Assembly (NCBI GenBank): GCA_914767715.1
Contig: OU612065.1
Span: 21,452,001 to 21,516,000, forward strand
Source of the DNA: Membranipora membranacea
Lineage: Eukaryota; Bryozoa; Gymnolaemata; Cheilostomatida; Membraniporidae
Direction of reading: 5' to 3'
Length of the DNA stretch: 64,000 bases
Positions 22,750 through 63,879 of the stretch are shown piece by piece. The position numbers and the translations under genes were made by a program. How positions within the stretch are numbered: position 1 is the stretch's first letter; each line of letters begins with the position of its first letter. The notes beneath the pieces were generated by a model that did no database searches, was not told where the DNA came from, and saw nothing but the letters and a program-made list of their open reading frames with translations.

Positions 22750-22799
22750 ATGTTACCAGAGACTATAGATAATAATATATCTATAGTCTCTGATGTTAC
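22750..22799. mobile_element. 36-bp hairpin insertion with 7-bp duplication
   Basis: The 36-bp core at 22757-22792 is a perfect hairpin with 15-bp arms (CAGAGACTATAGATA and its complement) and a 6-base loop. It is bracketed by exact copies of ATGTTAC (GTAACAT on the minus strand). Each copy is followed by a C, so the duplication could be counted as 8 bp. It belongs to the small hairpin-insertion class described in the findings, and its arms resemble those of the copy at 43458-43492. Confidence 0.8.
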
Positions 22800-25093
22800 C
22801 ACAAAAATTATTGATCTGACCGTTAAATGGTTAGCTCTGATGCTATGGTTGTACACAGTGATCTTATCATCTGTAGTATTTTGATGCAGACACAGAGACT
22901 AGGATAGTAGACACTCATATTTCCCAACGCACGCCTCTGCCTGTTATCCCCTCGGCTGATTAGCAGCAAACCTGTGGTGCAATGCCAAACTTGAGTTTAT
23001 AACCTTTTGAATCTACAATTAGTTCAAATAAGAATTTGTTTTAATGTTTTTATTTATTGTAGAAACATATCAATTAGTGCCTTCATAATGACCCTTGCCA
23101 TTAGGCGGCAATAAGCCTGTAATGCTTTTTGCCATAAAACCCATGATAATACATGTGGATTTAGCCACAAACCCATAAAATCAGAGGATGATGATATTTT
23201 GTATTCAGACTAGAACATCAAAATATCGCTGATTTATATAAGAAAGGAATGAAGTCATTCTTATTAATAATCTTCTGATGCTGCCAAGCTTTACAAGCCG
23301 ATTGTCGGCGCTGAAATAGGTCTGTCTCTATAACAAATCGTTCCACCTCAATACACTGTCTTTATACTAAATTATATCAAAGAGTGAAAATATTCAATTC
23401 TCAAAATCAAAGGCTGCGCTTGTCAATGCACTGGACAGTTATACCAAAAATCAAGCAAAAAATCTTCCCATGAAAACAAACGACAACACATGATGCCTCG
23501 GCCGCAGCATCAAGCTCTTGAGATAAGCCATACATTGGCTGCCTTTTGCCTTCTCTCTGTGCATATATATGAAGCTATAATAACCGCTGACTTGTGATGT
23601 TGTATGTTAGCGCTGCCAGTGATATAAGGACATGAAAGGGAGCTGTGAGTGAAGTAATTAAACGCACATTATGCCTCAATCACTTTCTGAGTCAGTGTCC
23701 CTTTTGTATAATTATATGTGGCCACAGCTAGCTCTACTCTCACAAACTTCAAAGGCAGCGAAATTAAGTCAACCTAAACGCCTTATGTAATATTTTTCAT
23801 CCAATGATATCAATAAATAAACTTGATATCACAAAGTTTGTTATGCTCGATGGCTAGACGCACAGTTTCTGGCATTCCGCTAACAGGAGGAGGTCATCAG
23901 AAATTTTATGCGGATTTGAGGACAGTGACAAACAATAGACGTGACAGGCCAAGGCTGTTATGAGCTAAGGTTACAAAGTTGGAATCAATAAGATCGAACA
24001 CATATTATTACGATATGCCTACCTTGGTCTTACAGTTAAAAAGAAATCTAGGACCCATACCTGGTGTGTGAAAATCAAGCTCGATACATGATCGTTCATC
24101 TAGTTGATAATATGATTTTGGCCAAAACTGTATCGAAAAGCTGTCACAAAAAATAACAGATTCGGTATTTTTCGAACTCGTGTATTGTATTTGGCAAAAA
24201 TTTGGAACAAAAGAAACTTGTTATTTTGTTTTTTTTGCAAATTACTCATGGCTGAAAAATCGACACACCCCGATCTCAGGACGAATTCCCCTCCCCAAGG
24301 AAATATGACCAATAATCACAGTCTGAGAGGAGATTTAGAGCAGCCCTTGGGTCATGCTGACTTTGTTATTTTTATTGATCATCCTTATCCAGGTAGCGCA
24401 ATAAAAGTGTGGGATTTATGCAACTCTATATTTATCCCAATTTTTTATCTATTCATGCTTGTTCAATCAAAATCTGGTTGCATGCATGTACCAACTGTTG
24501 TAATGAATTGCTTTCGCCTCTAAAATTTGTGGTATCGATCTCTTCAGTTAGGTATTTTGAGTCTAAGCTAAAGACCATACATCCTAGATAGAGTTGGACC
24601 CAAATTGCCAGCAATTCACTGAGAGTATTTGCACTCGCAATTCCTCCATCATTATCCCATCAATGTTTGCTTCTTTTGCTGCTGCTGCAAGGTAGCATGC
24701 TCTAAGGGGAGCATATTCTTTTATAGATTGAAGTTTGTGCAGACCTCGAATTTGGGTCCAGTATGGCTGCTGTTTTGCTTTGAATAAAGTCATCAAACAA
24801 ATGTTTGATCAGCCTCTAAAAAACCTGACAAATTGAGTTTGCGGCACTGCAGTCATTGTCTGAATACCACAATAATTTTGATACTTTGATGTAAAGTGGT
24901 AGTAAAAACCAGGAACAAATTCTTCATCAGGCTTACGTGACTGAAGTGCCTAACATTTTGTGTTCACCTCATGCATTCTGTGGTATAGCATCTTATTGTT
25001 CCTTTTTTGCTATAATTGCTCATGTATTTCAGTACCCATCCAGCACTTGTCAAAGTCTGATCAAACCTGCTGTAAAAGTTTGAGAAAAGTTCA

Positions 25094-25109
25094 GCTTAGG
25101 GCCCTAAGC
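25094..25109. repeat. Perfect 16-bp palindrome
   Basis: GCTTAGGGCCCTAAGC reads the same on both strands with no spacer. It has no flanking duplication and lies in the gene desert. It could be a dimeric protein-binding site or chance. Confidence 0.6.
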
Positions 25110-27097
25110 CTTCCTGAAATTCTCACATAAAATCTATGTACCAAGGTATTACTTCCATTGCTTCTCAGTCAAAATATGAGATGCTCATTGTTTTTTTATG
25201 CTCTTCCAATGGGGCACGAACCATGACCCCTGTGGTACCAATTATCTGGCAGTGAACAGCAAGGGGGACCAGTGCTTATGAATCAGTGCTGGCTAGCAAA
25301 CAAACAAGATGGAGATCGATAAAAACAAATATGGATTCTCAGATACGCTTATACAGTAGGGGGTCATGTGTGACAAATGAGCCTTGTCCTCTAATTTTGG
25401 CAGTTTGTTTTTTTATATATTAATAGACAGTGTAGCTATTCCTAGCTTCCGCTTTCCACTGGTTATAGTAGGTAAAAGAATCCAAAACAACTGGTGGCCA
25501 AACTATTCCAGCTAATCGTGCTATAATTAGCCTTGCTGAAAATTATTGTAAAATAACAATTTAAGTTGATTAAGGTAATTCCATTGCTAAGCTGGCGTTG
25601 GTATTTGTATGACTCCGGCTTAAGTGCAAGTGATGAATTGGACTTTTGTTTTAAGTGTAACATTGCGCAATCTACAACTTAACTTAATTTCTAGGGTCAA
25701 GCCACTAAGAGGACAGATATTCAGATATTCCCCACCATCATGCTCACTTCTTATGCTATCGGTCTGCTTGAAATATAGAAAATATAAATAAATAAAAAAA
25801 TTAAAATTAAAATGTATAAAAATGGCACGTACCAGGCAGTTTCATTTTGCAAACAGCAAATTTTTTCCTGACATTGCAGCTACACTTAGATATTTGGCAT
25901 GTGAGCCACGTCGACATTAAATTTATTTGACATTTACGAGATAGCAGATATGATATAAAACATGTAACGAGCATTTTATATTTTTTCTTAAGCCGTAAAA
26001 GAAAGTGTATTTTTATGAAAATGTGCGAATTAAACTAGATGTTTCTCTGGTTGCCTCCAGTTTGGTGAAAAATGAATATAATGTAATCATTGAATCATTA
26101 TCAATCTTATTATTCTTGGAAATCAGACTATCTAATGCTAGTCTGCTTTCTCTCCCATGACAACTTATAAAATCACACCATTTTCTTCTATTTTACAACT
26201 CCATCTATCTGTTGAATAATGTGAAATCTCTTCTTCTTATACCTAGTTGACGTCTTGTGTCCACTTTTCGCATATGTGTAGATTCTCTGATTGTGACGCT
26301 AATATGTATTCAAAGAGCAAGGTTATGTAATATATCAGGGTCTCTTGTTGCAATTCTTTTTCAACCGGTAAAAATCTGACTTTTTTGAAAATATTTCATT
26401 GACTGTCGTAATCATTTTAATGAATGTTTTCATCCACTTGTAAAACACCTGTATTCTTCAGGGCATTTTATATTTTATACAATCCCATTACCTCTGGTTA
26501 TGCGCCAATTCCAATCTGATATATTTCTCATTTTCATGAATCAAGTAAAAAGTGATTTACATATTATTACAATTTCTACCAGTACCAGTTTCCAAGTTCC
26601 ATATACTCAATTTGATTTCATAACTCTAGTGTATGATATAGCAGTAAAGCATATTATATAATTACGTGAAATTCTTGATTATTACTGTTTATACCAATAT
26701 GGTCCGTAGATTATGATGCTTAATTTTACATGAAATTATCGAGGCTGGCCATTTGAAATTTTTCAAAAATAATGATGGGGTTAGAAAATTGATTTGGACA
26801 TCTGGAGAAATTTTTAAAAATTCCCAGATAGAAAACTAATCTCAAACAGTTTTTGAATGATAAATACACCACAACAAAAAACGAATCAATGGTTAGTTCA
26901 TTTGTTTCCACCTGCGGTGCGGTCGAGATATCTCAGTTTTGCACTGCGTACCCAGGAAGAAGAATGCTCATGTCATTCTGAGAAGATAGATTCGCCAGAT
27001 ACACACAGGCTTTCACACTCTAGGCGTATCATATACACATGTAGTCTAAAAACCTTCCAGGTATATACAGGATTATAGCCCGCAACAAATAAACACC

Positions 27098-27141
27098 AGA
27101 TCAAAGCAGGGAGGGTGGGATACCGCCCTCCGAGATCAAAG
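27098..27141. mobile_element. 26-bp CAGGGAG hairpin insertion
   Basis: The core at 27107-27132 starts CAGGGAGGGTGGGA and ends CCCTCCG, forming a short GGAGGG/CCCTCC stem. Exact 9-bp copies of AGATCAAAG flank it. It shares its left end with the copies at 47264-47284 and 48357-48381. The flanking repeat is longer than the usual 7 bp and does not fit the GTNNNAT pattern. Confidence 0.65.
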
Positions 27142-30100
27142 TTACTAACATGCTTTGGTTAGTGAACTCTATGTGGTTATGTACAAACGTCAGCAGCAGC
27201 CCAAATCTCACCACAGTGAACTGCCAAGTTTACAGTGCTTATTCATCAATTTCATGGATACAAGTCACATGTGACAATACTGACAATAAGCTCGTTGCTT
27301 GTGATTCTCAATCTCACCCAACTGACCCTGACCGGCTTCTTGGAAAAGATTACTTGTGATAGTGATCACGCGATTAGTACACAAGGATTTGTGTGTTTGT
27401 CTTATTAGAAAACATATTTCCTGGCTGAGTTTGACTAGGTCAAGTATGAAAATGTTACAAATCTCAGCGGTCACCCAGTTTCTGCTTTGTTGTTTATGTT
27501 GTTCCCTTGCTGTAGCTTGGTGGAGGCACTTGTCTGCCAAAGCATTTAATCAGGTGTCGTTTTTTATCATTGATACCATCTAGAATCTGCATAATGTTAC
27601 CATAGGCTCACATCTGCTTGGCATGATGTCCCACTGAGATGGTCACTGATATATAAATACCCAAGAGTTGAGCAGATGTGTACAGTACACCACTGAGGGT
27701 TGTGACGGGCATCGATGGTGCGCAACTCACACTACACTTTGTCCGGTCTCATGTCTGGCCAAAACAACATTGACTTAGTCTCTGATATATGCATTTGAAC
27801 ATAAATTATGTAGTGTGATGTTAAAATGATATATTCTGGTTTACCCAGAGACAATCAGGAAATGTGGAGGTCTATGAAATTATCAATTCCTATAAAACTT
27901 CAAATTTCAATCAAATCTCAAATGGTTTTGAGGATATTTGTGAAAACCATAAATAATCCCATCAATTATTGGGCGTATTTTTCAGGAAATACTGTGAGGG
28001 TCTCTTTTGATTTTTTTGAATGAATCACCACCGAATATGGTTCGGTATGACCTACTTAATGTCACCAAATGTTAAACATTAAAGGGATTAAAATTTGATG
28101 GTAATTAATGAGATTTAATTCCTCATTATTGTCTAAGCCCAGGGATTAATAATCAGTAATAGTTGGTAACATACTAATTAGGGCCCGGTACAGTTACCAT
28201 TCAATGGTAGCAGATATCATGCTATGATACGATCAATCCCGGTTTCATATTTTAAAAATAGCCCTATTATTAAATTTCCTACAAATTGGATTGGCGACAG
28301 GATAGATCTAGCTCTGCCTTGATGTTAATCCTGGAGACTCAGTATCCTTCTTATCTTAGCTGGTCTGAAACATCCCCACATGCCAAGCGAAGAACAATTA
28401 GATGCATCGTTATCAGATTAAAAAACACAAACAACAAGAACCGACTGATGTTTCTTTGAGGTTGGATGGTAGAGGCAGAACTCAATGGAAAGATCAAACT
28501 ATTGATTACCAACAACAATGCCTCTGATAACTGATCAGAATTGGCAATGAACGCACCGATTAAATTAATTGTTTGTTTCAGTTGAGTTTCCTGGTTGCTT
28601 ATTTATGAATTCAAGAGATGAAGTTTTGGTACCTTGCGGTATAATCGGATTATCATATTGATTCATCTTTAATGACATCACTGACAGATGAATGTTTGTA
28701 CCATTGCCAAAATAATACTGCTGAACCGGGTGAGTCTGGGTCTTGAACTGGGCTTGTGGTTTTCCTGCACCTCTGCAACTGCAAATTATATTTTCAAAAC
28801 TAAAAACAACAATTTTATCTCAACTTTGTCTTGCCTGGCATTGACCGGCCCGGCTCAGCCCTTTGCACGCACTACTTTCAGGTTGAGATCTAAGCCTTTC
28901 TTCTGGACTATTCATCTTGAGGCTTGGGTAGAAAAAACGCTAGATCTTAGGGGAATGTATGTTTTCTTGAACTAATGCAGTGTCAATCAAGTGCACTGTA
29001 CAACTGCTATTGCATACGGTCTAATCATTGAATGTTATTTTCACTAGTTCAAACAAAACCTATGTCAAAGATTATAAATAAGTCATTGCCTATGTCACTA
29101 GACTCTAGAAAACTCTATTTTGAATTTGATAAGCAGCAAGTCATTTGGGAAGACCAATGCAGGGCAATGTTTGTAGACAAATCTGTGAATCAAAGATTAT
29201 GGAACCCTACTATTAGGTCGTTGAATTCTCATGCCGCTTGTTGATTTTATATTGGCAGATACCATGAGAAATTTGGATGGGGCCATGCATAATCTACGAG
29301 CTGACTCAGAGAAGCATGAACTTTGCAATAATAAAGCAGAGAGCGCTCAGGCAATAATATAGATTACGGGTCACCTGCTCCATAGTACAGCTGACTCATA
29401 ATGAAGGGGCAAGTGAAACAACAATAAACAGATTTTCAGATTACCAATCACCAAAAATACAGCATTACGTCACAGAGTAAGGATATATCATTTATCTTTA
29501 GCTTGTGAAGATGGAAGTAAGCTGCAGGCTAGATAATCCTTTTGTGGGAAAAAATTACAAAAGATAGTGGTAAAAATTGATCTCGGAGAGATAATGGATT
29601 CGAAAACACTGCCTCTGAAGCCGATGGTTTGTGCTTGTTTGGTGGCTGGAAAAGCTGAAAAATTTGGATCATCTTGGGTGTGGTCGGCCACAGACAAATA
29701 CAAAGGGTTTTAAATCCTCTTATAGTTTGCATTGCCATTCTACAGAACACTGAAAAAAAAATTATATTTTATGCTAATTTTCCAGACTGTTGACCGATCA
29801 CAGTTTCATACAAACATCCTACTAGTATTAATTCTAAGTGTGTACTGTTATAGTCTTGTCTAATTGATGATTTCCTCTTTGGCATAATCCCTACCTCAAA
29901 ATTTGTTTCAAAACATTCTAGCAAATAACCCCGAATTAAAACCATATAACTACAAGTAAATAAAAGAAAGTCAACCGGTACTCAAAACCAAGACTGACTA
30001 TAGAAGGTCAATAATTTACTTAGAAGTACAGCTATACAACCGGGTTCACTCGTCATCCTACCACTATATTCAATAGGCTTGTCTGTGGAGGAAGATTTAA

Positions 30101-30794
30101 GATGTCAGTTTGCTAGGCTCAGCTGCTGTTCCTACTGATTGCATTACCCTTCCCAGCTTTAGTCCTAGAGTGTCTGACGGGTCATGCCGAAATAACATTT
30201 AGTGGGTTTAAAATTGAGTTTGATCACTCGGAAGTTCTAAATATAGACAAATTTGTTTTGGGCTAATCCGGATTTGAGTAGCTAAATTAAATTAGACTAA
30301 ATGTGTTTTGAGTATCTAATATACAAAATAATTCTGCCAAAATCCAATCGATCTTCGAGCCAATATTTATATTTGATTAAGATTTACTCAATCTTTTTAT
30401 ATCAAACAAAATTGTTTATGCCCAATGAATGGCGGTGTCTTTTCACAGTGAATGTATTATATCTGATAATTGTTTTGATTGACTAACTTTATAGGGAGTT
30501 GCATACTTTTTAAGCAAGAAAGGACAAAAATCTTGAACAAAATAGGTATGAAATGGGATTCGAGATAGTTTTCTTCGGTCACAGGGATTCGAGTATATGC
30601 TTTATTTCACAACCGATCATTGGCTAAGAATGACCATGTGACCACGCTTGGCGGGTGTTGGAAAACCCTTTGCTGAAACTGAGAGAATATTATCCACATA
30701 GAGGTTTGTAGCTGAAACAATTTCCAACAGCATGATCTGGTGAAAGATTTCCCTCTAAAGCCGGCAACGTGCTGCCTCATACCACCACATCAAA

Positions 30795-36610
<5,816 letters not shown>

Positions 36611-36955
36611 CTTTGGTGTCGATGATGGTATGCTGTGGTGCTGGAAAAGGCTTCAGCGTTTATGTGCAATAAGCTCGTGTTGTGATAATACGAACTTCAT
36701 ATGTTAGGCGTAGCATGGTTTGTATATAGCAAAATTTCCTTAAGAAATAGATTCAGATCAAAGCCACAATCAACAGTTCTTCCTGTTTTATGTAGATTTA
36801 AAAAAAAGTTGTTTCACAGGCTGGGAGGTTCTTGCTTGTTTTATAGCCCTATTTGTAATAGACTACAGATTTGTTTTACCTTTTTGGCATTTTTTGCAAG
36901 TTATGTTATAACTTTTATGCAATATTCATGTGCAATTATTTTGTTTTAGTGTTTT

Positions 36956-36961
36956 AATAAA
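36956..36961 (+). promoter_or_regulatory. Poly(A) signal of CDK2-type gene
   Basis: AATAAA lies about 345 bases after the proposed stop in the short last exon and is the first canonical signal on that strand. It follows a T-rich stretch. Confidence 0.45.
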
Positions 36962-38019
36962 GTTATCAAGGTTTATTCTAATAGCTGACTATCCATCAAT
37001 GATTTAAATTACACTGATTTTATTACAGAAGTTATTAGTATGATTACTTATCAGAAGTAGAAGGTATAAACCTCAAGCAAAGTCAGAATTGATTTAGGGT
37101 TCGCATGAAAATATGAGAGCACAACTATATGGAGAATCTCCTGTTTATGCTTTATATGCTTTGCGCTTTTCATCAGGGAGTTTAGGACTATGTCCCTGTA
37201 TTAGCGTTTGATAATGTTTGATCCCTCTCAGCAACTTTTTATGTCCACATTTAGAGTGATATAAAATTATGTGCTCAGTAAACCCATTTTGGTAAAATCA
37301 ACATCTTTCTATGTGGGAGGATTAACAACCCCAAACTCTGCACAGTTGATGTGATATTGTCATTTTTCTATTTTCCTGCCTACTAATCATCTCTTAGAGT
37401 CTCGGGACATGCGGTTTATCTACCTGCAACCTATATTTTTGTTGTTCTCATCATCTCAAATATGACACAGTTGTATCATTTGAGTGGGATGCAATGCAAT
37501 GCAATGAGATGTTAGGGAAAAGCCAATCAGAGCTTTTTGGTCCATATATGGTTATGAAGAACTGCTGGCTCCCTGTAGATAGTTAGCCTTTGGATAGCTT
37601 CTGCAGATCCAAACTGAATATCTGGTATTCTCCATGTCATTTTATAGGATCTATATAAGCTTGTGTCAGTACTCCCCTCATTTTCTCTCTAGTTTGCTGC
37701 TAATAACTGGTGAAATGTCATTTTGACAAACTGAGAGTTGTCTTGACTCTATTGAAAAGCTTTAATCTCATTGGATAATTTTGTTTATGATTCAATTTAC
37801 AGATTTAGAAAAGTTATGCTTCAGTTATTGCGGCGTCATTGTAATCAGCCACAATTGTAAGGCAATGTATTATTTGGATTTCAGGCTACATTGTTATTAT
37901 TCATATCAGTGGTGAGTCAGAATTAACAAGTGATAGCAGGTGCTCTAATAAGCTGGACTGACATAATTTGTGTGACTTGTATCTGAACAAGGAAAGTATT
38001 AAAAGACTGGGAACATTAA

Positions 38020-38077
38020 TACTTCTAGAGAGGAAACATTTACACTTATACTTCTAGAAAGGAAACATACACACTTA
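38020..38077. repeat. 29-bp tandem duplication
   Basis: Two adjacent 29-base units beginning TACTTCTAGA differ at three positions. They look like a simple local duplication and carry no coding sense. Confidence 0.8.
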
Positions 38078-42800: not shown

Positions 42801-45800
42801 TAGGGAAGATTTTCAAAATATAGGCATCATTTCCTGTATTCAAGCAGATGGTGTATTTAATATGACACTTTAAATGTAGATTTATGATCCTTGGCCTAAT
42901 AGCGGAGACATGATTAGCGGAAGGGTAATATGGGGAACTTATGTGAAAATCTTCATGTAATATGCTTAGAGAAGCTGTTGCCTGTTGGTATAAAAGTCAG
43001 GTCAGCTGCCTGTGTCCGTAAAACTTAATGAGCTTTTTTGTTCTATATTATGCTCTAAAATCTAATGACCTCTTAGAACTTGCATCTTTAAAGAAAAGCA
43101 CAATCACTGCTTACGTAGGAAGACCAACATTTTTTCCATTTTATTTGATAAAAACCCAAAAATAACAATGAAAAACGATTTGTAGATATAATGTTTTTTG
43201 ACAGTATGCAATAATTTCATAACGTCTCATGCTTACAACGTAACTCATTCTTTGCGGTGTCATCTTCATCGCAATTACATCATAACAAGCTTTATCATTG
43301 AAGCTAAACTGCCTCATCAGGAATTGCCTGTCATAAATCTTAATAAAACGCAAAGTATGTACCATTTGTGGCTCACGGCTGTGTCTAGCCTCTTGTGATG
43401 TGGTTGAGTAATAGATGATTATCTCTCCCGCTCTCCTACAGCCATCTCTATCATTACCATAGACTTAATATAGACTAATATATAAGTCTATGATCATCAC
43501 CTTTACCTATTTGCCTGTTCCCAGCTTGACTTTGGATTAGGATTAGGACATATTATAGTTATTATCTACTATACAATTATAGTCTTAGGCTGATTGGTAG
43601 TCATTATGTTCTTATTCTCACTGTGGGGATCGTCTTACTCTTATTAAAATTACAGGGTCCTCAAACCATACCAAACCATACTGGAAACTTGTGGTGACCC
43701 GCGATTAGCTCAATGAATATTCTTTTACAATACCCAAAGTGGAAGTGAACAATCAGTTTTTGCACATATATGAATTGATAATTTTATTTACATAAGCTCA
43801 CAGAGTAAGGATATACTTACGCTGTGATAAGCTCATCCTGGATGCTTCACCAAATTATGTAATCTTTGATTGGGAAGGGTTGGTTGGATAGGAAGGGATT
43901 GTTATGAGATACATGTCACTTTATGGCACCTGCTTATCTGGGATAGCATGTAGATGAGTTCTTTGCTTGACGTTCCCATTTTTGTTATGTTTTGTAGGTT
44001 ACTCCTCAGCCGAGAGTGAACGTACCTCAACCTCACCCATCCGCTCACCCCTCTACCGCTCACAGGCCTAATTATGCAACTGATGATCAGAAGCAGGCGA
44101 GATCAGAGAGTAAACTGCCCGTCCCTGAGGTACGAGAGAGGAAACACAGACAGTCACCGTCAGTTAGTCAGCAAGTGCCAGAGTCACAACACAAGCATCA
44201 TCACCAGGAGAAGCAGCGTCCACGACGCCGCAGTGGTGAACGAGAATCTAGGTCAAGACAAGAAAGACAACAAGTGAGTCAATAGCAGTACAGTCTGTGC
44301 TCTTGGCTCTGTTAGTTCGACTCCTCCGTGTATATAAGTATAAACCAAGCTTGGTCCGTCTGCCTGCATTCGGAGTCGCTCCCAATCCTCTGGTCACGCG
44401 TGACCAGTGGAAGGGAGCAACTGGAATGCAGGCGATTGGATTATACTTGATCTAATATAAGTGTGGTACCCTGATGGATACAGTCATATTGGCACAGACA
44501 CTTGATAATATGATGTCAGGCATTAAATGCTTCAAATGACATTCTGAGAATCCTGAATGTTGGTGGGTTGTGAATGGACCGCAGCCTCAGGTTGTTAGTC
44601 ATATTATGTGATAAGGGAAGTCACAATGCATTACACACAGCGGGTCTGACTCAGATTTCTGGTATGAATTTCCGGTGTGTAATTTTTTTTGCATAATTAT
44701 GCAACGAAGTAAGGTTTTCCTTGCATCCTAAAATATTGGGACTAATTTGAATCATAGTTTTCAATGTGGTCTTTGTGGTTATTTTTAGGGCTAACGAGTG
44801 CCATCTGCAGAGCTGGAATCATAATCGCCCACCCACTAACTTCAAAATTCACAACAGATTATCTGATTTTGAATATCATTCGTTTTTTATGAACACGGTT
44901 ATAATTTTTTATTAGCAAAAGGAGAGAGAAGCCAGGCTGAGAGAGGCGTACGAATTGCAGCAAACCTTGGCTAACCACGAGAGGAGACTTGAAGATGAGA
45001 AGAGAAAGCTCAATAATGTAGACAGAGGTAACGCAAAGCTCCAGACATCTACATGATTTCAACTTAATCCATTACTATAATAATAGTTAATATTGAGAGG
45101 AAGTGCTTTGCTTTTCGCTGTGTGAAAGTATTACTCCTCCCAGCCTTTGAAGTTGCTATGGTTGGCGAAAAAGTCTAAACCGTTACTGGTACAATTATCT
45201 GTCACCAAGACTCAAACGTAATTGTGTTCAGGTTCCAAAATTGCAAGGCACAGCATAGCAACCGGTTTGGGATATGACAGTATGTTATGTTGCCAATCGA
45301 TTGAGCTTTGATCGGTATATGTCCATCAATCAACCTCCGCCCATCCTAAATGTCACCTTTTTCCTAAATTTAGTGAGATTATTTGAAAAATGTAAAATAT
45401 AATTATTCACTCAAGTGGTTGCCACATGGCCCACACAGCCTGGTAGTAACAAGAGGTTCTAGGATTTAGTAGTAATGTGATTAACCTAATGGCTCGTGAA
45501 TTGTTGTTTTTGTCACCCAGTGGGTGTTTTGCTGAGGTTTCTCTGTCAACAAGCCTATGCTAAGCCTAATGAGATTAATAGTTAATACCTATAAGTGCAA
45601 ACAATACATAGAGGTCATATATACCTAGGGTGATGGAGTTGACCATCTTGGCACTAATTACGTTGGTCTCAGTCATCTAACAAAGATCCTGTGGGATTTG
45701 AGATTTCTTATTATTGTAATGAACCGTGATGAACTTCATAAGGTAAAGATGACGCAACTTTACCTGGCAGTGAAGCTGTAAAAGTTAATACCATTTATAT

Positions 45801-47813
45801 ATTATTTACAGAAATCAGTAATGTGACTATTGAAGAGGAGAAGAAATGGGGTACACTGTACGATTGCCGAGATGAGATTAGCAGGTCACTACACACAGTA
45901 CAGCGATTAGAAGTAGACTTGGATTCATGTGATGAAGTGTTACTATCTGAAGAGCTCAATGTGCTATTAAGAAAGCAGGAAGAACTTGATGAGGAAATGA
46001 ATGAATTAAGGGTACAGTTGACGGACTGTGATAGTCATATACTCACAGAACATCAACAGACCAAATCTCTGGACAGTGAGCTTGATGATTTAGAAAAAGA
46101 CAACGCAGATATAGATAAAGAAATCAAGGGCACTGAAAACGAGATGGAAAAGTTGCAAAGCAGAGTGGAAGAAAAAAAGAGGTATGTTATATTGTCATGA
46201 GAAAAGTGGGAAAAGTTCTTGCTTTTCATTTTGATTGTCATGGTTGCATAATTTTAATGGCCTAATAGGTCACTGCTGCCTTTCGTATAGTAGTTCCCAA
46301 CAAAGGAAGAGTTGTTTGCCCATTGACATTAGATGGACAACTCCTCATATTACAGATACAACATTATTACACATCAAATTGCGCTTATTTTTTCATCCAA
46401 AGCATTGTATTTATGACATAGGTTTTTAATGGAGGCTGAGGATGGTTATATGTCAGCTTGTGATGATCTGAAGGAGGCAGATAACTCTCTAGAGAAGAGG
46501 AAACAGATGCTGGTGGAACTGGAGCGAGAATTACGAGAATATAATCTCAAAACATTCATCAACACCGGCTTTATTGATAAAAGTGAGTATAGATTCACTC
46601 ATATTGTATCTTTTTTCAACACAATGTTAAGTTTCAGAATCACTAGGCCCTAAGCTTCAGAGTTCCAGGTGTTAAAATGTTTTCTCGATGTGAATGTTAC
46701 AATCCAAACCATGATGTTAAGAATATACATCATCTTAAAAATGAATTATGAAGTAGAAATGTTTTTTATGGTTATTAGCTGTGTCAGCTGAAAGCTAGTC
46801 TCTGGCAGTAAGTTGTGTATGTTATTGTGAACTAAAGCTGAGCTTCCTTTCTAATTGTATCAACTAATCCGATCGTTGTGTATTAACAACCCCCTCGATT
46901 CTGTGTGATAAGAAACATAGGTCAGATGTTGAAGTGAAAATACTCAGTGTTCATTTTGCTCTTGTGAAAAGTGATACTAATTCTGATAATATTGATATTG
47001 TTGTTGAGTGTGAGAAAAATTCTTCTATAAACTACCACAATCGCTCATGGTCTCAGGGTGCTCTCCTCACTTGATGCGTTAACCTTAATTGTAAACTTTT
47101 TCAATATCTTGTAATCTATGCATGGAATTTCAAATAAAATCTCCACTGTAAGAACATAGGGTAGTGGAAATAGCGAGATATAACTAGTTTATTATACCCA
47201 TAGTTGTGTTCTCATTTCATATAACAGGACAACTCCCATGCACAACATCACCTTTTGTATGATCAGGGAGTTTGGGACTCCCTGGTATGATAAGCACAAA
47301 CTTAGAGGATAAACTTTCGTCTAGCTCAAACCAAGGAGTTTAACTCCTAGCTCAAACTCTCTACATTATCATGTGTCTTGTCTGTGGTCACACTTAGTGT
47401 CTACATAGTATACATGACATTATAGAACATTGTTAGGATTTATTCATTTTGAAACTTGATGTTGTGTCAGATTAAGCTGTTAAAGATTTCAGGGGTCAAT
47501 GAATTTCATTTCTAAGATTGTTATTGTCTTGGAATAGAGTAAGTCAGAACAAACTTCACCTAGACAACATTTGCCTCAATACATACACGAGCGCTTCAAT
47601 ATTTATTGTTTGTCATTATATTATGACATACACAATGTACCAAATCTTAGAGAGCCATACAGAAATATAGCATGATTCTAGATAATTATTGAGCTGTCGG
47701 GTGTAAGTGCAATCATGAATATGTTTGTTGTTTTTGCAGATATGGATGGTGCAAACTTACCATCTTTGCAGAGTAACAGTCTGCCTTCCTCTCACCCAGG
47801 CTTGCTGGTGTAG
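39890..47813 (+). CDS. RASSF8: RASSF7/8-type Ras-association protein
   Basis: This is an N-terminal RASSF family adaptor. In flies and vertebrates RASSF7/8 acts at cell junctions and the mitotic apparatus. Exons are 39890-40105, 41434-41658, 43998-44273, 44916-45027, 45812-46181, 46422-46582 and 47740-47813, giving 477 residues in consistent phase. Residues 1-80 form the RA domain, starting MELRVWIGSVQRVI and including EVIVALAQATGKTGRFTL and EKWRDYE, with VQFILRQTGE opening the next exon. A basic Pro/Ser-rich linker follows, with the KKSMSFSGGA motif that matches RASSF8. From about 240 to 440 the chain is a long coiled coil ending ERELREYNLKTFI, which aligns with the RASSF8 end. The C-terminus is HPGLLV, a possible PDZ ligand. 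Two ATGs at 39875 and 39884 are in frame upstream, but MEL is the family start. The end of exon 2 is the least certain boundary. Confidence 0.92.
43450..43500. mobile_element. 35-bp hairpin insertion in RASSF intron
   Basis: The core at 43458-43492 starts CATAGACTTA and ends TAAGTCTATG, a 10-bp perfect stem with weaker pairing inward. Flanks are ATCATTAC and ATCATCAC, 8 bp with one mismatch. The arms resemble those of the copy at 22757-22792. It fits the small hairpin-insertion class but is older or less exact. Confidence 0.65.
44330..44460. repeat. Palindromic element, copy 2
   Basis: The centre GGTCACGCGTGACC is a perfect palindrome. Arms of about 55 bases follow, with GCCTGCATTC at the left mirrored by GAATGCAGGC at the right, and outer ends TATATAAGTATAA mirrored by TTATACTTGATCTAATATA with a few indels. 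It is similar to copy 1 at 39030-39133. It lies in an intron of the RASSF-type gene. Confidence 0.8.
46305..46345. repeat. GAGTTGTC fold-back repeat, copy A
   Basis: GAGTTGT at the left is mirrored by ACAACTC at the right, around the shared centre CATTGACATTA. The same arrangement recurs at 61436-61472. It lies in an intron of the RASSF-type gene. Confidence 0.65.
47257..47291. mobile_element. 21-bp CAGGGAG hairpin insertion
   Basis: The core at 47264-47284 is CAGGGAGT, a 5-base loop and ACTCCCTG, a perfect 8-bp stem. Exact copies of GTATGAT flank it. This is the shortest clean member of the hairpin-insertion class in the window. It lies in the last intron of the RASSF-type gene, 30 bases from a second such locus. 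Confidence 0.85.
47321..47357. mobile_element. Small hairpin insertion with long duplication
   Basis: CAAGGAGTTTAACTC is flanked by exact copies of CTAGCTCAAAC, 11 bp. AGGAGTT and AACTCCT form the stem and use part of the right copy. The longer direct repeat and shorter core differ from the main class, so it could instead be a local tandem duplication. Confidence 0.55.
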
Positions 47814-49329
47814 CTGCCACAGAAGACAACTCAAGCTGAAGTTTAGAACCTATAGATACATGTCGGTGCTAGCTAGTGCTCACAAAACATATCAGGCTGT
47901 GATATAAGTATCTTAAAGTGCATATGGTTCATGGTTGTGAAATCTTTCAGTTGTGCGATTATTATCCAACCCGGAATCCTTCCAATAGCAGCTGGCCCTG
48001 CCATTTATTGTCAAACATAGATTTTGCAAATGGTTAGCCAATCATATCAATGCCAAGCCAAAATATTGGCTAGCGAATGGTTCATGGCTCATGTTTGGCT
48101 CACGTATCTGCTCTGGTAATTTTGTTATCAGTGTTCATTTTTTTCTATTTTTCCGTAATCTGTATGTTTTTTTGTCATTTTTCATTACATTGTTCTACTA
48201 GATGTAGGTCAGCCAAGAGTATTATACGATGAAAACACTGCAATATCATTATTACCTCTATGATTCTTACACTAAGACACTAGTTAGACTATATAACTGG
48301 AGGCCTTGTCAGTCATACCTCACACTCTCCCCTACTTGCCAAAACATCAGTCTCATCAGGGAGGGCGGGACACCCTCCCCGGTCTCATCAGGAAATTTGG
48401 CAATCTTCAGCAATATTTTGTACTGCACACTCTATTTTTTTCATGATCAAAATCTTTGGAATACATTCTCGTTTTCATTTTTATTCGTATTTCATTCGCA
48501 CTCATTTTTCTTGCCAAGCTGTGAGCTACCTGACCGACAAACTAAAGTATAACATTCACTCAGATAAACTGTATGAACACCAAATTATCTTTTAAATTTA
48601 TTGTTACCTATAATTTAATTGGTATGATAATAATAAATATTTGAAAATAGATCAGTTTCCAAGATTTGTTTTACTTCTCTTGCTCAGGAAGACCAATGTA
48701 TGTCAAATTCTAACTTGGAAGTTATTTTGTTCTAATTTGCTTAGCTTGATCATTGAGATGGCAGGTAGCATTCGAGTTCCTGGCCTGCAAGCACATGGTC
48801 ATTCTAGGTATTGTCAATGCCAATGTTGTGACTGCGTCGGATAAAAACTTTAGCTTGAAAACAAAAATAAAAGAGCTGCAGGTGAATATACATATATTGG
48901 GTTATCTGTAATTTATTCACATCAGTTACCTACTTATATTTTTTCTACAAAACTACAGATCTTGAATCAAAAATAAATGCTGTGAAAAGAGGTGAAAATA
49001 AAATTGAAGAATGAATATCATCTACTTTGTCCCAAGGTAGGAAATAAAGGTTAGTAAATAAAGCTAGGAGTGACTGTTGAACACCAGCCGAAGGTGTTAC
49101 ATTAATGAGTATTATGCAGTAGTAAAGCAAGGAGTAGCAGGGTTACTGTTGCTCATTTGGGTCAAGTAAAAACCTGAGTGTCGGGGAAACGAAACTGATA
49201 TTTAGCTTCAAACATTAATATAAATTCATACATGTGAATAAGTATCAGCGGGGTCAAACCATGTATCACAGGACTCCCTCCCCTTCATTAGTCACAAATA
49301 TTTGATAGAAAGCTAAAGACATTCTGATT
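47814..49329. other. Convergent intergenic region
   Basis: This region lies between the stops of the RASSF-type gene (plus) and the XNDC1-like gene (minus), so it should hold both 3' UTRs. Candidate poly(A) signals are AATAAA at 48632-48637 on the plus strand and at 48912-48917 on the minus strand. No coding exon was found. A hairpin insertion is at 48357-48381, and a GGTTAGCC/GGCTAGC fold-back lies near 48025-48080. Confidence 0.55.
48350..48388. mobile_element. 25-bp CAGGGAG hairpin insertion
   Basis: The core at 48357-48381 starts CAGGGAGGGCGGGA and ends CCCTCCCCG, forming a strong GC stem. Exact copies of GTCTCAT flank it. It shares its left end with the copies at 27107 and 47264. Confidence 0.8.
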
Positions 49330-52300
49330 CTATTCGATGATACAGTTGCTGGCATGAACTTCAATGAGATTAGACAAGAAATATTTGAAACATATCGGAC
49401 ACTGAACTGCATTAGAACTGTTCTGTGTTTTGTAAGTGAAGTAAGGATTTGTATAATCAGAGCTGGATGACCGATAACTGCCAGCGTTGTGATTGGTCTG
49501 CTGCGAGTTTGCTTTATAACCATGTGGAACATACGTCGCATTGGGTGTACTGCTACTTGGAGTATAAATGCTTAAACGAAACCATGATTCATCATTAAAT
49601 TAATGTGGTTTGTGATATTGTGGACATTTCAAAGGCAGAACTGGTTTACTGTATATATGAGCTGCGGGATAACAATAGCCATGATGTTTGTTGATTTTGT
49701 CACTGGGTGAACAAAACAGATTAAATCCAACCCCCAATCCCACATCACAAAACAATGAAGTGTCAACTCCCAGTATTTTATGCAATGAGATACATTCATA
49801 TCCTGAGGGAATGTGGGATACACATCCCACCCTCCCTGGTGACAGTGAAACTTCACCCTGCCAAGCTGACAGTTATCTATAAATGTAATTTGGGCAACAT
49901 GATGCTCAATGATATTCTATTAGAGGAAATACATGGGTGATGTATGGCACACAGCGGTCAATGAGTTTACCTTTTTGAGTGTCCGGTGGAAGTATCCAGA
50001 GTGATCTCCGGCAGGTCATCCTCATCATCACTAGATACTATGACATCAGGTGCCGCTGACAGCCCGCTGTATATCGCTGCACCGTGTACATGAGGTCGGT
50101 GAGGCATGTGATCCGAGAATAGACTAGGTTCTATACGAGCTGGTGTGGTGATATGTGTGGGTGGAGTATCACGTCTCATATGAGGAGAGGGTATAGCGGT
50201 GTTAGGCCTGAGCGGTGGTGGATCCCCTTCTTCCTCATCAGATGATGATAGCAGATCTTGGAGAGTGAGACATGATTGTGACTGTGATTGTGACGGAGTT
50301 TGAGTAAAACTTGCGCCGCCAGCTGATTGATTGAAGGAAGGTGTGGCAGTTGATGTCTGGGTCTTTTTCCGTGGGGGCAGCATTAAGTCATCATCGTCAT
50401 CACTGAGTAGGTCTTCAATGGTTCGCTTTTTGAGGTTGTTGCAGTTAGGTCTGATCTCCGTTCTTAGAGAAGTAGAGCTATGCTGACTCGGAGACACAGC
50501 AGTACTGTTGATATTACGCCTCGGCTGACTTGAGGTACTCTGGGACTCAGTTGGGGCTTTTGGGGTTTGACTATTAGCTACTGGCAGCGCTGTTGACCGA
50601 GCCGTAGCCGGCTGAGCTGTTGATCTGCGGGCTGCTGGTGATCGTGAGAAGCCTGACCTACGCTGTGATGCAGGAAGCAGTTTGAAGGATTTGGGAGTTG
50701 TCTCTGTAGCGCTTCTGAGTGGTGTGGTGTTTATTATTGGTGAGGGAAGGGATGGAGACGGTTTTGTAAAGCTGGGCAGATTCTTCAGAGGTGTTGAACT
50801 TGTCCTCCCCGTACTGACTCTCTGTGAAGCCTGGCTAACAGATAGAGAGATGCCTGCAATCTTTTGAGCAGCCATCTGAGTTAAGCTTGTTGACATAGGA
50901 GTGTTACCCTGACTATTTGAAATCGTACCATTCCCCACAAAACCCCCATTTCTTGTTACAGTGGTTAAGGAGCTCACTTTTTGTTTTGCTTCAGTTGGAG
51001 TCGACTGTACGGTAGCAATAGTCATCGCATTGACAGGCGGATTTACGACATTAGCTATAGTATTGTTGAAGGCTGCGGGTTCAGAAGGTAAGCTTTTATG
51101 GGCTGCTGCAACATCCTTGGGTTTACTCAACAACGATCCTGAATCGTTTACTACTGAAACGTTCCCCATCTTCCCTTTCGGAGTGATTGGCCTGTCTTGA
51201 GTTGCTGTACGCTTGGCTATTACTTGACCATTAGTCACAAAGTCTTTGAAGTGAGCTGGAGCTTTGATAATTCTTAATGATCTGCATCCGTTCACACTTA
51301 ACATAGCCTTCTTCAAATCCTCTACAGTTATATTGCCATTTTCATGAGTTTGGCTGATTATGTCCGATACTCTAGTAGGACCATTAGGCCAAGCAGTTAC
51401 AGTTGCGCCATTGGTCAGTTGAATGATAGGTGGGTTTGGCAACGTGTGTTTACCTTTGGGAGTGATAGCAGTATTAGTTGGTTTTCCTTGGATGGTATTT
51501 GCAGTGGTTGTGACAGGACTTGTTGCCGGAACACAGTTTTGTGTGGCATTAGTGCTTGGTGTTGTCACTGTACCAGGTCCTGGTTTGTTTGGTGTGATGG
51601 CTAGATTATGGATCTTATTTCCCTGTGCTACAAAATATTCAAAGCAGATTGAATTCAGCTAGCCTGCTCAAGTCTAATTCAGCATTGAGGCCCAACGGTC
51701 AGTGTCAACAAACTTTTTTATTGTTGTAGATATCTATGTGATTGGGCGCTTAAGCAAAAGGAAGGTATGCAAGTTCAAATTAATAGTTAAGAAAAATAAA
51801 ATGACAAATAAAGCAGTTTGCAATCTGAGGGAGATATCTGATTCGGCTACAAACCTGTATGAGCTGTTGGAGAATTCACAAGGTTAGTGCCAGCAGTGAG
51901 CTGAGGTGTCCTGGCCTGAGCTGTCACGTTCGTATTAGGAGATGTTAACACTGCCCTTATACCAGGAGATGCAGATGGCCTTTGTGGAGTAACAAACAAA
52001 CCATTAGTTCCTACTCCAGCTTTTCTGTCATGTTTTGGAGTTGTCACCACACACCCAGCAGCAGGAGTTTTTGGTGATATCACACTGTCGACAGCAGCAG
52101 ATTTTCGGGGTGTTACAGTGAGTATATCAGCTTCTCCAGAGGAATCATAAGTCATGTCTATCAGCTCAGGATTAGCTGAAGCGGCGGATGGAAGCTTTTT
52201 GAGTTGGGGTGAGTTATTGGGATTGTTTGTCAGTCCTTTAGAGAGTTGTTTGGCCATCTCCATCACTTTCAGATGAGCTGCTGTTGGCTTTTTAACTGGC

Positions 52301-55300
52301 GCTCTCTCTATCAAAAAAACAATGAAAATTTTCCAGTGAGGAATGTTTATGCTAACATTTAAAGTGATTTGATACTATTTCAAGTGATTTGCTACTATTT
52401 CTTACTCAAGAGACAGTAGATAAATGTAAGATTGATGGATAAATCTTTGAACACAGAAACTGTATCTTTCTTTGAATACTTGGATTTGCATTAGGCCACA
52501 CCAAATTGATGTCTTGATCTAGATTTACCTCCCTCCTCTAAAATATTATCTGGATCATAGAAATAAACTAAAATTACCTCCAGCCTCCAGCTGATCATTC
52601 TCTAAATTATTGTAAAAATAACACAAAATGTGTGATAAAATGAATTTCCCTCCAGCGTCCTCTCCATAATTGCCAAAAATAAAACAATAAAATGGAATTC
52701 CCTCCAGCCTCCTCTAGTATTTTGGCATAAAATGAAAAATAATATACCTCCTCCCTCCTCCAAAATTCCTTCTTGCTCGTCATCTAGATCAAGACATTAA
52801 TTTGGTGTGGCCTTATAAAGAGTAAATTAAAGTTGTACTAGAATTCACCGAGGCATATTGATTTGACTAACAACTCATGTTGAGCTGCAACCCTAATACA
52901 GAAAGTGCAATTTTATCAAAGGGGTAAAATGAGATGGAATACCTTCAGCATGTTGGGATGTTTTCTGAGAGCCGTTCACACGATTATCAAAGAACTCGAG
53001 AGCGTATCCTTTGAACAGCTTCTTCTCATCACTGCTCAGTTTTCTACATTTCACTTTTTCGAATTGGTGTCGCAGTTCTGTAATACATGAATATGAAATT
53101 GTTAAATATTTTTTCTGTTGCAAAAAATTGTTCAACATTTCAACCACTTATTATGGCATGGCGAATCATTGACACAAGTCAAGTTAAGATTTTGCAAGAC
53201 AGTATCACAGCATTTTATTTGACATGGCCACCCTGAGTATCGCTTTCTCACTTAGTGAGCCAGACCTGCTAGGGGTCTCTTTCCCAAACCGCTCAGTCAT
53301 TGATGCAACTATATGCATTCTGAGTGAACAACGAAAATTTGCTTTGAAAGCATGGATATTTCTGATTGCAAGACCCGTGTGGTTCCTCATTATCCAGAGT
53401 TGAACTCACCTGACACTTTCATAGAATATGGATCTATATTTGTTAGATCAAGTCCTCTAAAGAATGTCCTTATAGACCCCATAAACTACAAACAAAACAT
53501 GGCACACAAAATTACTAGTAGCAGCTTCCAAATCCTTTTTCTTTGAAGCTGTAGAAATATGTTTAGTTTGTTTAGGTTGCTTAGTTTAGAGAGCTCAGCT
53601 TTCAATTTCTTTTTCTCTACTGTCTTCAAAGCTGAAATTGGCAGTTCCAACCGAAGATAAGAATTGGTAACATATACAAAACCACAATTATTCTGTCAAA
53701 ATAGCTGAAATGTATACAAAAGAATTCAGACTATTCCACAGTCTGGCGCAAGCCTTTTATATATTATGCCAAAACAACTATTACTGTTATCTTACCATGG
53801 TGGTGAGAGATGTCAATTCTTTTTTTTGTCAAAAATATAATTACTTTTTATACATCTAACTAATATCATTTAAGTAACTTTGCTAATATCTTCAGTTGTG
53901 ATTATCTAGCTCAAGAATATACATGTACGATTTTAACCAGGTCAATCTAACCAGGGAGAATGGATCTAACATATTTTAATCTAGAATCTAAGAAGTCTGG
54001 AGATAAACACCAACGTAACTCACAGTTGGTTGTGCGCTGCTAGGACTAGATTTTTTCTCCATTAGCTCATGTACTAGCTGAGTCTTATGTGTTGGTGTTT
54101 TAACCGCCGCCATCACCATTCTCATACTCCTATCATTGTTCTGTGAGGTCTGCCCTGACTTCATTATCTGATTGAGTCGACCCTGCATTGCTCCTTTGAA
54201 CCAGTTCTCCTTAGAGCTACAATTACAATCACCATGTTTCCATGTGAGTTTCGAGGTCGACCTAGATCGAGCTGAGTTGTCACCTCTTGGCTCGATCTCA
54301 AAATATGCAGTCATTCCCATGGTAGAGCTGAGAAAAAAAAACATCAAAAAAATCTGCCGCCGCCGGGATTTGAACCCCGGCCTCCCGCATCAGAGTCTTT
54401 GATGCTAACCGCTCAGGGCCGAGCTCGCTGTAGTGCGAGCCAAAATGTGCGAGCTGAACCTTGGAGCTCAGGGCGATCTCGGAGGCAGTTCCATAGCTCG
54501 AAGTTAAGGCTAATTAGCCTCAGGTCGACTTCAGAACTACCATGGAAATGCAGTGATTGAATATGAACTTTATAGAGCTTTTAGTAAAAATCCCAATGCG
54601 CACAGTGGTGACGGCAATCAAACTACCAATGTCTATGGGTTTTAAACAAAGAAATATGAATATAATTATGGTTGGAGGGTTCCAGCAAGGAGTAACATGG
54701 GAGAGGAGTGATAACTTCCTGTATTTATTTGTTGAGGGTCCCCTCGCTGCATTCTGGTATATTTTCTGTTATAGGGGTATCTCAATTCCAGTATCAGTCA
54801 TGAAATGCATAAAAACACAGATTAACAAAAAGTTTAGGTTTGGCCAAAAATCCTTCGCAAAATGCAATGAGAAAATAATAGCACACAAACCTTGAGGAGT
54901 TGCTACTTGGGCTAGTCGAGTCATCTTTATCTTGTGCAGCCAACCTGTCCAACTTAGATCTGGAGGGACTCTACAAGTATTCATCAAGAGTTATAAGGTT
55001 ATGGTATTTGAGCTGAGGCCCGTTGTTTAGTATTTTGAAAACCAACTAAATTTACAAGCAAGCAAGGACTTTCAATAAAAAACAGCCAACATCGCTATCT
55101 GATCCCTCACTCAGCGATTGATGGAACAACAAATGAAAAACCCCCCTGATGTTTAGCATGACACATCATTTTCCTATGAGATCACATCATCATAAACGCT
55201 GTCTGAAATGTATCAATGTGATTAAGAACCAGTTCTCTAAAATGTGCAACTTGCCAAAATTGATGGTTTGAACTGGGCAACAAAAACCCAGGCCATTTTA

Positions 55301-56941
55301 TCACTCATACTTGTATATCAGCCTGACTTGACAAGCTTGTCATGGCAGGCAAACTTGTATCCACGAGCTTGTCAAGACAGGTCAACTTGAATGTGTATTT
55401 AGATGAAATATCAACTCACACTGTTATTGTTGTCAATGTCGAAATCTGTCTCAGCTCTTAGCTTTAGCATAGAGACTCCAAACGGCTTATCTTTTCTGAA
55501 AGGCTGAGTGCAGATAATCCTCATCCTGTCCCAGGTCTCCCGTCTGTTAGTCTCATCAAAGTTCTCTAAGAATCGTAACAATGACTAGTATTTAGTATAT
55601 TTTATTGAAATAAGATTTCATTTAGTCTCATCACAATAAAGAAAAGCCCAAAAAACACAGTCCCTCGGTAAGGATATGTATATATTATTGTGACAATGGT
55701 CACCATTGTAGGTTAGTCACAAAGTGAGAACAATTAGTCTGTTACAGTACAAAACTTGTTAAACTCAGGCAAACACAAACGGAAAGTTTGATGCAATACG
55801 AAATTGAATCCTTTTGCCAGCAACTTACCAATAAAATGGGAGCTTATTGAAATACAGAGAGTTGGTTCAAATGTTACCTTCAAAAGCCCATTGGTGATGG
55901 TAATAATGGCCTACCTGTTTTGAACATGCGTACGGCATTCTTGTTTGTTGCCGATCTTGAGTCGTTAGCAGACATGAATGTCGTAGCACTGATCAAATTG
56001 TAAAAGTTCTCATCACCGCTTCTGGCTACCTGTATCTCTATCGAGAAGCTACCATTGTTTCCTGTGTACAAAACAATACAGATAAAAAGTCATTACGGTT
56101 ACAGTCTGGCATTCAAATCTTTAAAAAAAATCATAATCCTTTAGCCAAAAAAAAGGCAGGATAAGCATATAAGTTCAAATATGCCACATCAAGTTTAATC
56201 TGTGTAACCCAAGTAGTATTTATTTTTGATTTGAATTCAATTTATTATATCTACTTTCAATTTATCCATCAATTTTATCATTCTTCACCTTTAATTTTAA
56301 AGTTCAACGCTTAGAAATTACTGTTTTCATAACAGCTCTATCAAGCGTTCCAAAAAATAAACACTTCAATGATTATTCCTAATAAATAACCTCTCAAAGT
56401 CTCACATTTATCTCAAAAAAATATGAACGACTGGTAAATATCGAGAAAGCCTACTGACCAATATCGATGTGCGCTAGAGCTGATCTCTGATCCAACCGGA
56501 TAGTAACTTCTGCCCTGCCTCTTTTCATATCCATTGCACTGCACAGCCAACCAGTACTTGATTTCTGGAGATTGCTAGCTGGATATTTCGCATCCTGTAA
56601 TAAAATGGGTTCACACTGGACATGCAGGGTTTGTCAGCTGCGCTCGCAGGAATTAAAGTTGGCCAATCTTGACAAAAAATTCAAAAAAACAAAATCCACC
56701 AATCGTGATTCGGAGGGACTTTTGAAAACAATCAGCAAGTGATGCTTGGCATATTATCATCAGTCTTAGCTAGGATTCCAATGATCCAGCAGCATGTCTC
56801 ATTTGAATGTCCAGTAAACACAGAGAGATACCGACATACCCTTTGACTTGAGATGATTATCTTACCAATGAACGGGAAGAGGGAGTTCATTGATCTTACC
56901 TGTGAGCTGTAGCTAGAGACAGTGAACTTCAGTGCAGCCAT
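49330..56941 (-). CDS. XNDC1: XNDC1-like protein: XRCC1 N-terminal domain and UBZ4 finger
   Basis: This is a probable nuclear DNA-repair adaptor. Eleven exons join in phase: 56941-56900, 56594-56459, 56061-55915, 55565-55420, 54970-54891, 54216-54024, 53485-53410, 53077-52943, 52307-51855, 51627-49971 and 49570-49330 (about 1101 residues). Residues 1-150 match the XRCC1 N-terminal domain, with KFTVSSYSSQDAKYPASNL, HIDIGNNGSF, TFMSANDSRS, NAVRMF and ETWDRMRIICTQPF. The BRCT domains of XRCC1 are absent. The long middle is disordered, rich in Ser, Thr and Pro, with SUMO-interaction-like motifs ELIDMTYDSSGE (about 367) and DVIVSSDDEDD (about 997) and acidic DLLS repeats. The last exon ends in a C-x2-C-x11-H-x3-C finger (1079-1098), a Rad18-type UBZ4. 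Alternatives: an acceptor at 54327 adds 37 residues, and exon 10 could stop at TAA just past 49971, losing the finger. The acceptor of the last exon could also be at 49549. Confidence 0.85.
52491..52815. mobile_element. Tourist-like MITE with TTA duplication
   Basis: The 319-bp element at 52494-52812 has inverted ends of about 31 bases that start GGCCACACCAAATT and carry TTGATCTAGAT. TTA flanks both ends. A 3-bp TTA duplication and GG-starting ends are marks of PIF/Harbinger-derived (Tourist-type) MITEs. The interior has repeated CCTCCAGCCTCCTC segments alternating with AT-rich pieces, about 65 bases per unit. There is no coding capacity. It lies in the intron between exons 8 and 9 of the XNDC1-like gene. 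Confidence 0.8.
54233..54555. mobile_element. Composite inverted-repeat element with tRNA-like core
   Basis: The left end carries TTTCCATGTGAGTTTCGAGG and AGGTCGACCT. The right end carries a mirrored version (TTTCCATGGTAGTTCTGA and AAGTCGACCT on the minus strand). The two ends define an element of about 320 bases. A tRNA-like segment sits inside (listed separately). Further internal inverted repeats include AGATCGAGC/GCTCGATCT. It lies between exons 5 and 6 of the XNDC1-like gene, ending about 16 bases from the exon 6 acceptor at 54216. Confidence 0.65.
54353..54427 (-). repeat. tRNA-derived segment with Pol III-type terminator
   Basis: On the minus strand a B box GGTTCAAATCC (54376-54366) lies in a near-perfect T arm. 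A five-pair anticodon stem (CATCA/TGATG, 54404-54388) encloses the loop AAGACTC, with GAC in anticodon position. A-box-like bases precede it, and seven T residues follow directly. The 5' acceptor strand does not pair with the 3' strand and base 33 is A, not T, so it is not a functional tRNA gene. It is most likely the tRNA-derived head of a SINE inside the composite element. Confidence 0.55.
55322..55380. repeat. Fold-back element, CTTGACAAGCT arms
   Basis: CCTGACTTGACAAGCT is mirrored by AGCTTGTCAAGACAGG about 28 bases later with one mismatch. The arms resemble those at 62575-62652. It lies in the intron between exons 4 and 5 of the XNDC1-like gene. Confidence 0.7.
56859..56899. mobile_element. 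27-bp CAATGAAC hairpin on a 5' splice site
   Basis: The core at 56866-56892 has 8-bp perfect arms (CAATGAAC and GTTCATTG). Exact 7-bp copies of ATCTTAC flank it. On the minus strand each copy reads GTAAGAT, and the copy at 56899-56893 is the 5' splice site of exon 1 of the XNDC1-like gene. The other copy forms a second potential donor 34 bases into the intron. Confidence 0.85.

Positions 56942-58105: not shown

Positions 58106-63879
<5,774 letters not shown>

What the first reader, a model, noticed from the sequence alone, without database searches (positions are those of the whole stretch)
22750..56899. A class of 21-36 bp hairpin insertions with 7-bp GTNNNAT duplications
Five loci (22757, 31242, 47264, 48357, 56866) each hold a compact hairpin of 21-36 bp that begins CA and ends G, bracketed by an exact 7-bp direct repeat. 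Read in one orientation the repeats are GTAACAT, GTCAGAT, GTATGAT, GTCTCAT and GTAAGAT, so all fit GTNNNAT. A sixth (43458) has an 8-bp imperfect version and a seventh (27107) a 9-bp repeat. Exact flanking repeats plus a shared target pattern are hard to get by chance. The ends fit the hAT terminal consensus YARNG in most copies, and T at position 2 with A at the second-last position recalls hAT target sites, shortened by one base. No room exists for transposase-binding subterminal sequence, so these would be almost pure ends. This looks like an undescribed minimal element class, or a repair or replication product with site preference.
Basis: partly seen in the sequence, partly recalled or inferred. 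Interest (0 to 1): 0.88.

Follow-up and report, generated by a model that had tools for sequence, protein, structure and literature searches.

The report
Transposon exit scars, not tiny elements
The small hairpins scattered through this stretch of animal DNA are real and alike in kind, and they look like scars left when P-type jumping genes were cut out and the break was glued back together, rather than a new class of tiny jumping genes.

Summary
The five named hairpins carry exact 7-bp direct repeats. An unbiased scan finds seven hairpins with exact 7-bp flanking repeats (0.20 expected, maximum 3 in 200 simulations), all CA...G, and none at 8-12 bp. Two are new (43799, 47332); 27107 also reads as a 7-bp case and 43458 as an 8-bp variant.

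Best reading: excision footprints of P-superfamily transposons with 7-bp duplications (like 1360, Galileo), not a minimal hAT-like element. P transposase cuts 17 nt inside each inverted repeat; joining the two 17-nt donor overhangs leaves a hairpin of at most about 34 bp plus filler between the duplications. Observed: 19-36 bp. Two cross-locus pairs are identical for exactly 17 nt from CA, then diverge; copies of one family differ at the junction. Duplication length and target pattern match 1360/Galileo.

Limits: no parent element or transposase was seen, one family's shared end fades near position 15, three related hairpins lack duplications, and genome-wide, sister-species and protein searches could not be run. 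Known kind, new instance; moderately interesting as a fossil record of transposase cutting and repair.

The parts
22750..22799 (-). Footprint 1: 36-bp hairpin (22757-22792; read as 17+2+17) between exact 7-bp duplications GTAACAT (read on -)
27100..27141 (+).
31235..31281 (+). Footprint 3: 33-bp hairpin (31242-31274) of the CAATGAAC family, duplications ATCTGAC; first 17 nt identical to the end of footprint 9
43450..43500 (-). Footprint 4: 35-bp hairpin (43458-43492) between 8-bp duplications with one mismatch (GTGATGAT/GTAATGAT read on -)
43792..43833 (+). Footprint 5 (new): 28 bp (43799-43826) between exact duplications ATAAGCT; first 17 nt identical to 29471-29487
47257..47291 (+). Footprint 6: 21 bp (47264-47284) of the CAGGGAG family, duplications GTATGAT; read as 17+4
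47325..47357 (+). Footprint 7 (new, weakest): 19 bp (47332-47350), duplications CTCAAAC (repeat extends to 11 bp); looks like a shortened relative of footprint 6 (10 of first 17 positions equal)
48350..48388 (+). Footprint 8: 25 bp (48357-48381) of the CAGGGAG family, duplications GTCTCAT; read as 17+8
56859..56899 (-). Footprint 9: 27 bp (56866-56892) of the CAATGAAC family, duplications GTAAGAT (read on -); read as 17+10
29471..29507 (+). Probable footprint without flanking duplication: 17-nt end identical to footprint 5, then a weak second arm (12 of 17 pairs, 37 bp)
37174..37198 (+). Probable footprint without flanking duplication: 25 bp, CAGGGAG family (15 of first 17 nt as in footprint 6), 6-bp stem; not supported by the arm test, which tried only total lengths of 30-40
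49805..49838 (-). Probable footprint without flanking duplication: 34-bp hairpin (2 x 17), CAGGGAG family; its far end reads TC, not TG
27785..27835 (-). Possible footprint: 37-bp hairpin (27792-27828) with a 7-bp repeat matching 6 of 7

Best explanation
The hairpins are excision footprints of P-superfamily cut-and-paste transposons of the 7-bp-duplication type. Steps inferred: (1) a P-like element with ends CA...TG inserted at an RTNNNAY-like site and duplicated 7 bp (occasionally 8). (2) Its transposase later cut it out, cutting one strand at the transposon boundary and the other 17 nt inside each inverted repeat, so each donor flank kept a 17-nt 3' overhang of transposon end. (3) The host's end-joining repair filled in and joined the two overhangs, sometimes keeping both nearly whole (33-36 bp), sometimes trimming one or annealing at short matches (19-28 bp). 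The result is duplication, up to 17 nt, inverted up to 17 nt, duplication: a hairpin, with no function of its own. Shown here: anatomy, enrichment, target pattern, length cap, and the 17-nt break in two cross-locus pairs. Inferred: the transposase family, the excision and the repair route.
For: Exact 7-bp repeats with CA...G hairpins: 7 against 0.01 expected. TSDs in one orientation: T at position 2 in 7 of 8, A at position 6 in 8 of 8, T at position 7 in 7 of 8 (orientation chosen by me, which flatters the counts). Published 7-bp target patterns of P-superfamily members: 1360 GTTNAAC / KTNBWAB, 274 of 279 insertions with 7 bp (passages of PMC3276498); Galileo GTANTAC/GTATTAC, mostly 7 bp, three copies with 8 bp (passages of PMC4168063), like locus 43458. 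P transposase cuts 17 bp inside the inverted repeat and leaves 17-nt 3' extensions, and the donor break can be repaired by non-homologous end joining (passages of PMC7776569); [quoted passage not shown] In the window 31242(+) and 56892(-), and 43799(+) and 29471(+), are identical over exactly 17 nt from CA and then diverge (3 and 2 of the next 13 positions equal). A TSD-less relative is exactly 34 bp.
Against: No P-like parent was found in the window: no long element with a 7-bp repeat and well-paired CA...TG ends (three candidates, each 9 of 17 pairs; none at 7 bp with CA...TG, though 60721-62810 has CA...TG ends, 10 of 10 paired, with a 6-bp repeat AATGGT). No transposase family in the 19 of 70 stop-to-stop frames that were tested. 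P elements of flies, mosquitoes and zebrafish duplicate 8 bp, not 7. The 17-nt cut was read for Drosophila P only, not for 1360 or Galileo, and no passage that I read shows a 34-bp palindromic joint; the zebrafish THAP9 assay reports flanking deletions, small with the fly transposase and larger with the zebrafish one. Averaged over 17 pairs, identity of the shared ends is 0.47-1.0 at positions 1-15 and 0.24 and 0.35 at 16 and 17, so the CAGGGAG family fades near 15, not 17. In the 43799/29471 pair the base before CA is also equal. Three related hairpins lack the duplication (29471, 37174, 49805). Empty sites could not be examined.
Confidence: 0.77

Rival explanations
1. A minimal mobile element class: 20-36 bp hairpins that are themselves inserted, in trans, by a hAT-like or P-like transposase.
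Against: Copies of one family differ in total length and junction while sharing an end piece; no two of the loci listed here carry the same whole hairpin. hAT (hobo) duplications are 8 bp. No room for the internal transposase-binding sites that P ends have.
Confidence: 0.06
2. Excision footprints of another superfamily (for example a hAT or an unrecorded group with 7-bp duplications and a deep staggered cut).
For: The anatomy shows only that the duplication is 7 bp, ends are CA...TG and end pieces of about 17 nt remain; the transposase was not seen. hobo's target pattern also starts GT and ends AC.
Against: hobo duplicates 8 bp; hAT excision puts hairpins on the flank ends and leaves random footprints, while Tc1/mariner leaves 2-3 bp overhangs. 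Of the families read about here only P has a 17-nt stagger.
Confidence: 0.11
3. Remnants of internally deleted non-autonomous P-like copies (aborted gap repair copied from a template) rather than end joining of a clean cut.
For: P breaks are also repaired by homologous recombination, and zebrafish has multiple internally deleted P-like copies.
Against: Such deletions should leave ends of varied length beyond 17 nt; no hairpin with paired ends of 37-70 bp and an exact 7-bp repeat was found, and two pairs break at exactly 17.
Confidence: 0.05
4. Chance hairpins or replication slippage products.
For: The count of 7-bp repeats of any kind in the window is above the Markov model (450 against 223, inflated by a tandem repeat), and 5-bp repeats around hairpins are in excess.
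Against: 7 against 0.20 expected at exactly 7 bp, none at 8-12 bp, 7 of 7 CA...G.
Confidence: 0.01

Closest known systems
Excision footprints of the Drosophila P element (17-nt stagger, non-homologous end joining)
   Same: Expected form: duplication, up to 17 nt of one end, inverted up to 17 nt of the other, duplication; ends CA...TG (recalled for fly P; zebrafish Pdre2 ends CATACC...GGTATG read)
   Different: 7-bp instead of 8-bp duplications; seen as sequence in a genome, not in an excision assay; parent not seen
1360, P superfamily
   Same: 7-bp duplications; target GTTNAAC / KTNBWAB
   Different: Drosophila family; its footprints were not read about and its ends were not compared
Galileo, P superfamily
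   Same: 7-bp, rarely 8-bp, duplications with consensus GTANTAC
   Different: Very long inverted repeats; Drosophila; target edges here are often GT...AT, not GT...AC
hAT elements (hobo, Tol2)
   Same: T at position 2 and A at the second-last position of the target; starting ends fit YARNG in the original five loci (by eye)
   Different: 8-bp duplications; hAT excision leaves random footprints

Membership tests
P-superfamily excision footprints | Target duplication of 7-8 bp with an RTNNNAY or GT...AC-like pattern | tested here: met
   7 exact 7-bp cases, plus 27107 and one 8-bp case with a mismatch; base counts for 8 TSDs; published patterns. ATAAGCT (43799) fits the pattern at only one of the two inner positions
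P-superfamily excision footprints | Ends begin CA and end TG, inverted | tested here: met
   Of the 7, CA at the start in 7; last two bases TG in 5 (AG at 47332, CG at 48357); the scan asked for pairing only, not for CA or TG
P-superfamily excision footprints | Transposon ends retained up to 17 nt each, total at most about 34 plus filler | tested here: met
   Lengths 19-36; two pairs break exactly after 17; in the CAGGGAG family the break is less sharp, about 15
P-superfamily excision footprints | A parent P-like element with the same ends in the genome | not testable with these tools
   None seen in the window; genome search unanswered
P-superfamily excision footprints | P/THAP9-type transposase | tested here: inconclusive
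   No such family in 19 of the 70 stop-to-stop frames listed; the rest of the window and the genome not searched
hAT superfamily | 8-bp target duplication | tested here: not met
   0 hairpins with exact 8-bp repeats, 7 with 7-bp; one 8-bp imperfect case (43458)
MITE | Many copies of one non-autonomous sequence of similar length | tested here: not met
   No two listed loci carry the same whole hairpin; same-family copies differ after the end piece; only one 64-kb window examined

The most novel reading that the evidence does not exclude
The small TSD-flanked hairpins of this animal genome are fossil repair joints of an uncatalogued, once very active P-superfamily lineage with 7-bp RTNNNAY duplications. 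They are dense enough here (nine within about 34 kb) to serve as a genome-wide record of where the transposase cut (17 nt) and how germline repair joined the ends, and the TSD-less 34-bp hairpin marks a joint between ends of two different elements, that is, a P-driven deletion or inversion.
Probability: 0.35. Interest if true: 0.62.

Novelty: new member of a known kind. Interest (0 to 1): 0.45.

Why it matters
If right, small hairpins that look like a new element class are read as scars. They preserve the cut position of a transposase and the repair outcome over evolutionary time, so the 17-nt stagger of the P superfamily, which I read of for one fly element, becomes testable from sequence alone in other animals. 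They also warn that hairpin-plus-duplication scans will report 'minimal MITEs' that were never mobile as such.

Tried and rejected
Cyanobacterial small dispersed repeats embedded in heptamers were my first idea, recalled and not seen in the listing (20 of 122 papers shown); dropped when the window proved to be animal DNA with homeobox exons. hAT-like minimal elements: rejected on duplication length and on junction variation. Long P-like parents in the window: none convincing. The 44-nt inverted repeat at 31703-32020 was considered as a possible MITE and left unresolved. A bacterial-type promoter scan of the first locus had no bearing. Literature: nine searches; I saw listings only, except for passages of PMC7776569, PMC10983969 (plus its whole section 6), PMC1562414, PMC4168063, PMC8230255, PMC3878927 and PMC3276498. 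No paper describing such hairpins as a genomic class of P footprints appeared in the parts of those listings that were shown; that is not proof that none exists.

Selections: the motif count uses eight 7-bp TSDs and leaves out 43458 (8 bp) and 27792 (uncertain). The pair comparison uses 17 pairs in three families that I grouped by eye; the singletons 22757 and 43458 are not in it. One search dropped low-complexity 7-mers before counting; of 450 repeats (223 simulated, mean of 60) 13 start CA with T at 2 and A at 6 (2.0 simulated, maximum 5) and 10 are CA...TG (1.1 simulated, maximum 6); the tandem repeat near 33213-33300 inflates the totals. In one search, of 35 CA...TG hairpins of 16-40 bp, 5 have an exact 7-bp repeat, 1 matches 7 of 8, 1 matches 6 of 7, and the other 28 show at most 5 of 7. 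In one search's arm test the share of random places doing as well was 0.004 for 29471, 0.001 for 49805, 0.02 for 43458 and 0.85 for 37174 (whose 25 bp lie outside the lengths tried). On re-checking I lowered the main confidence from a drafted 0.80 to 0.77, because of the contrary passages and so that the odds add up to one.
Full report
What the window is. It is animal DNA of 37.6% GC with six reading frames of 120 aa or more. Frames at 10736-11167 and 16081-16488 (minus strand) carry homeodomains and one at 34637-34921 a protein kinase piece. From memory the second homeodomain looks like a posterior Hox (Hox11/13) of an invertebrate deuterostome; that label comes from no call. The scars found lie right of about 22.7 kb.

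Noticed in passing
window 1-22700: None of the nine main footprints lies in the left third, which holds the two homeobox exons; with a uniform spread the chance is about 0.02 (boundary chosen after the fact). Hox clusters are said to be poor in transposons (recalled).
   Followed up: partly
window 31703-32020: 44-nt inverted repeats, 95% complementary, 230 nt apart, including CAGGCCTC...GAGGCCTG between GTCAGAC and GTCTGAC; could be a MITE.
   Followed up: no
window 52490-52816: 35-nt inverted repeats, 94% complementary, 257 nt apart; MITE-like.
   Followed up: no
window 60721-62810: 2,090-bp stretch with CA...TG ends, 10 of 10 terminal positions paired, between 6-bp repeats AATGGT; AT-rich, may be chance.
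   Followed up: no
window 33213-33300: 33-bp tandem repeat (CCTGTGTAACAGTTAGTGGCATTCCATAACATG) that inflates the 7-bp repeat count.
   Followed up: no
window 610-649: Perfect 19-bp inverted repeat with a 2-base loop; no 6-9 bp flanking direct repeat at the CA...TG core inside it.
   Followed up: no
window 53945-53970: CAGGGAGAATGG between exact ATCTAAC repeats; perhaps a footprint with one end lost, but ATCTA motifs recur locally.
   Followed up: no
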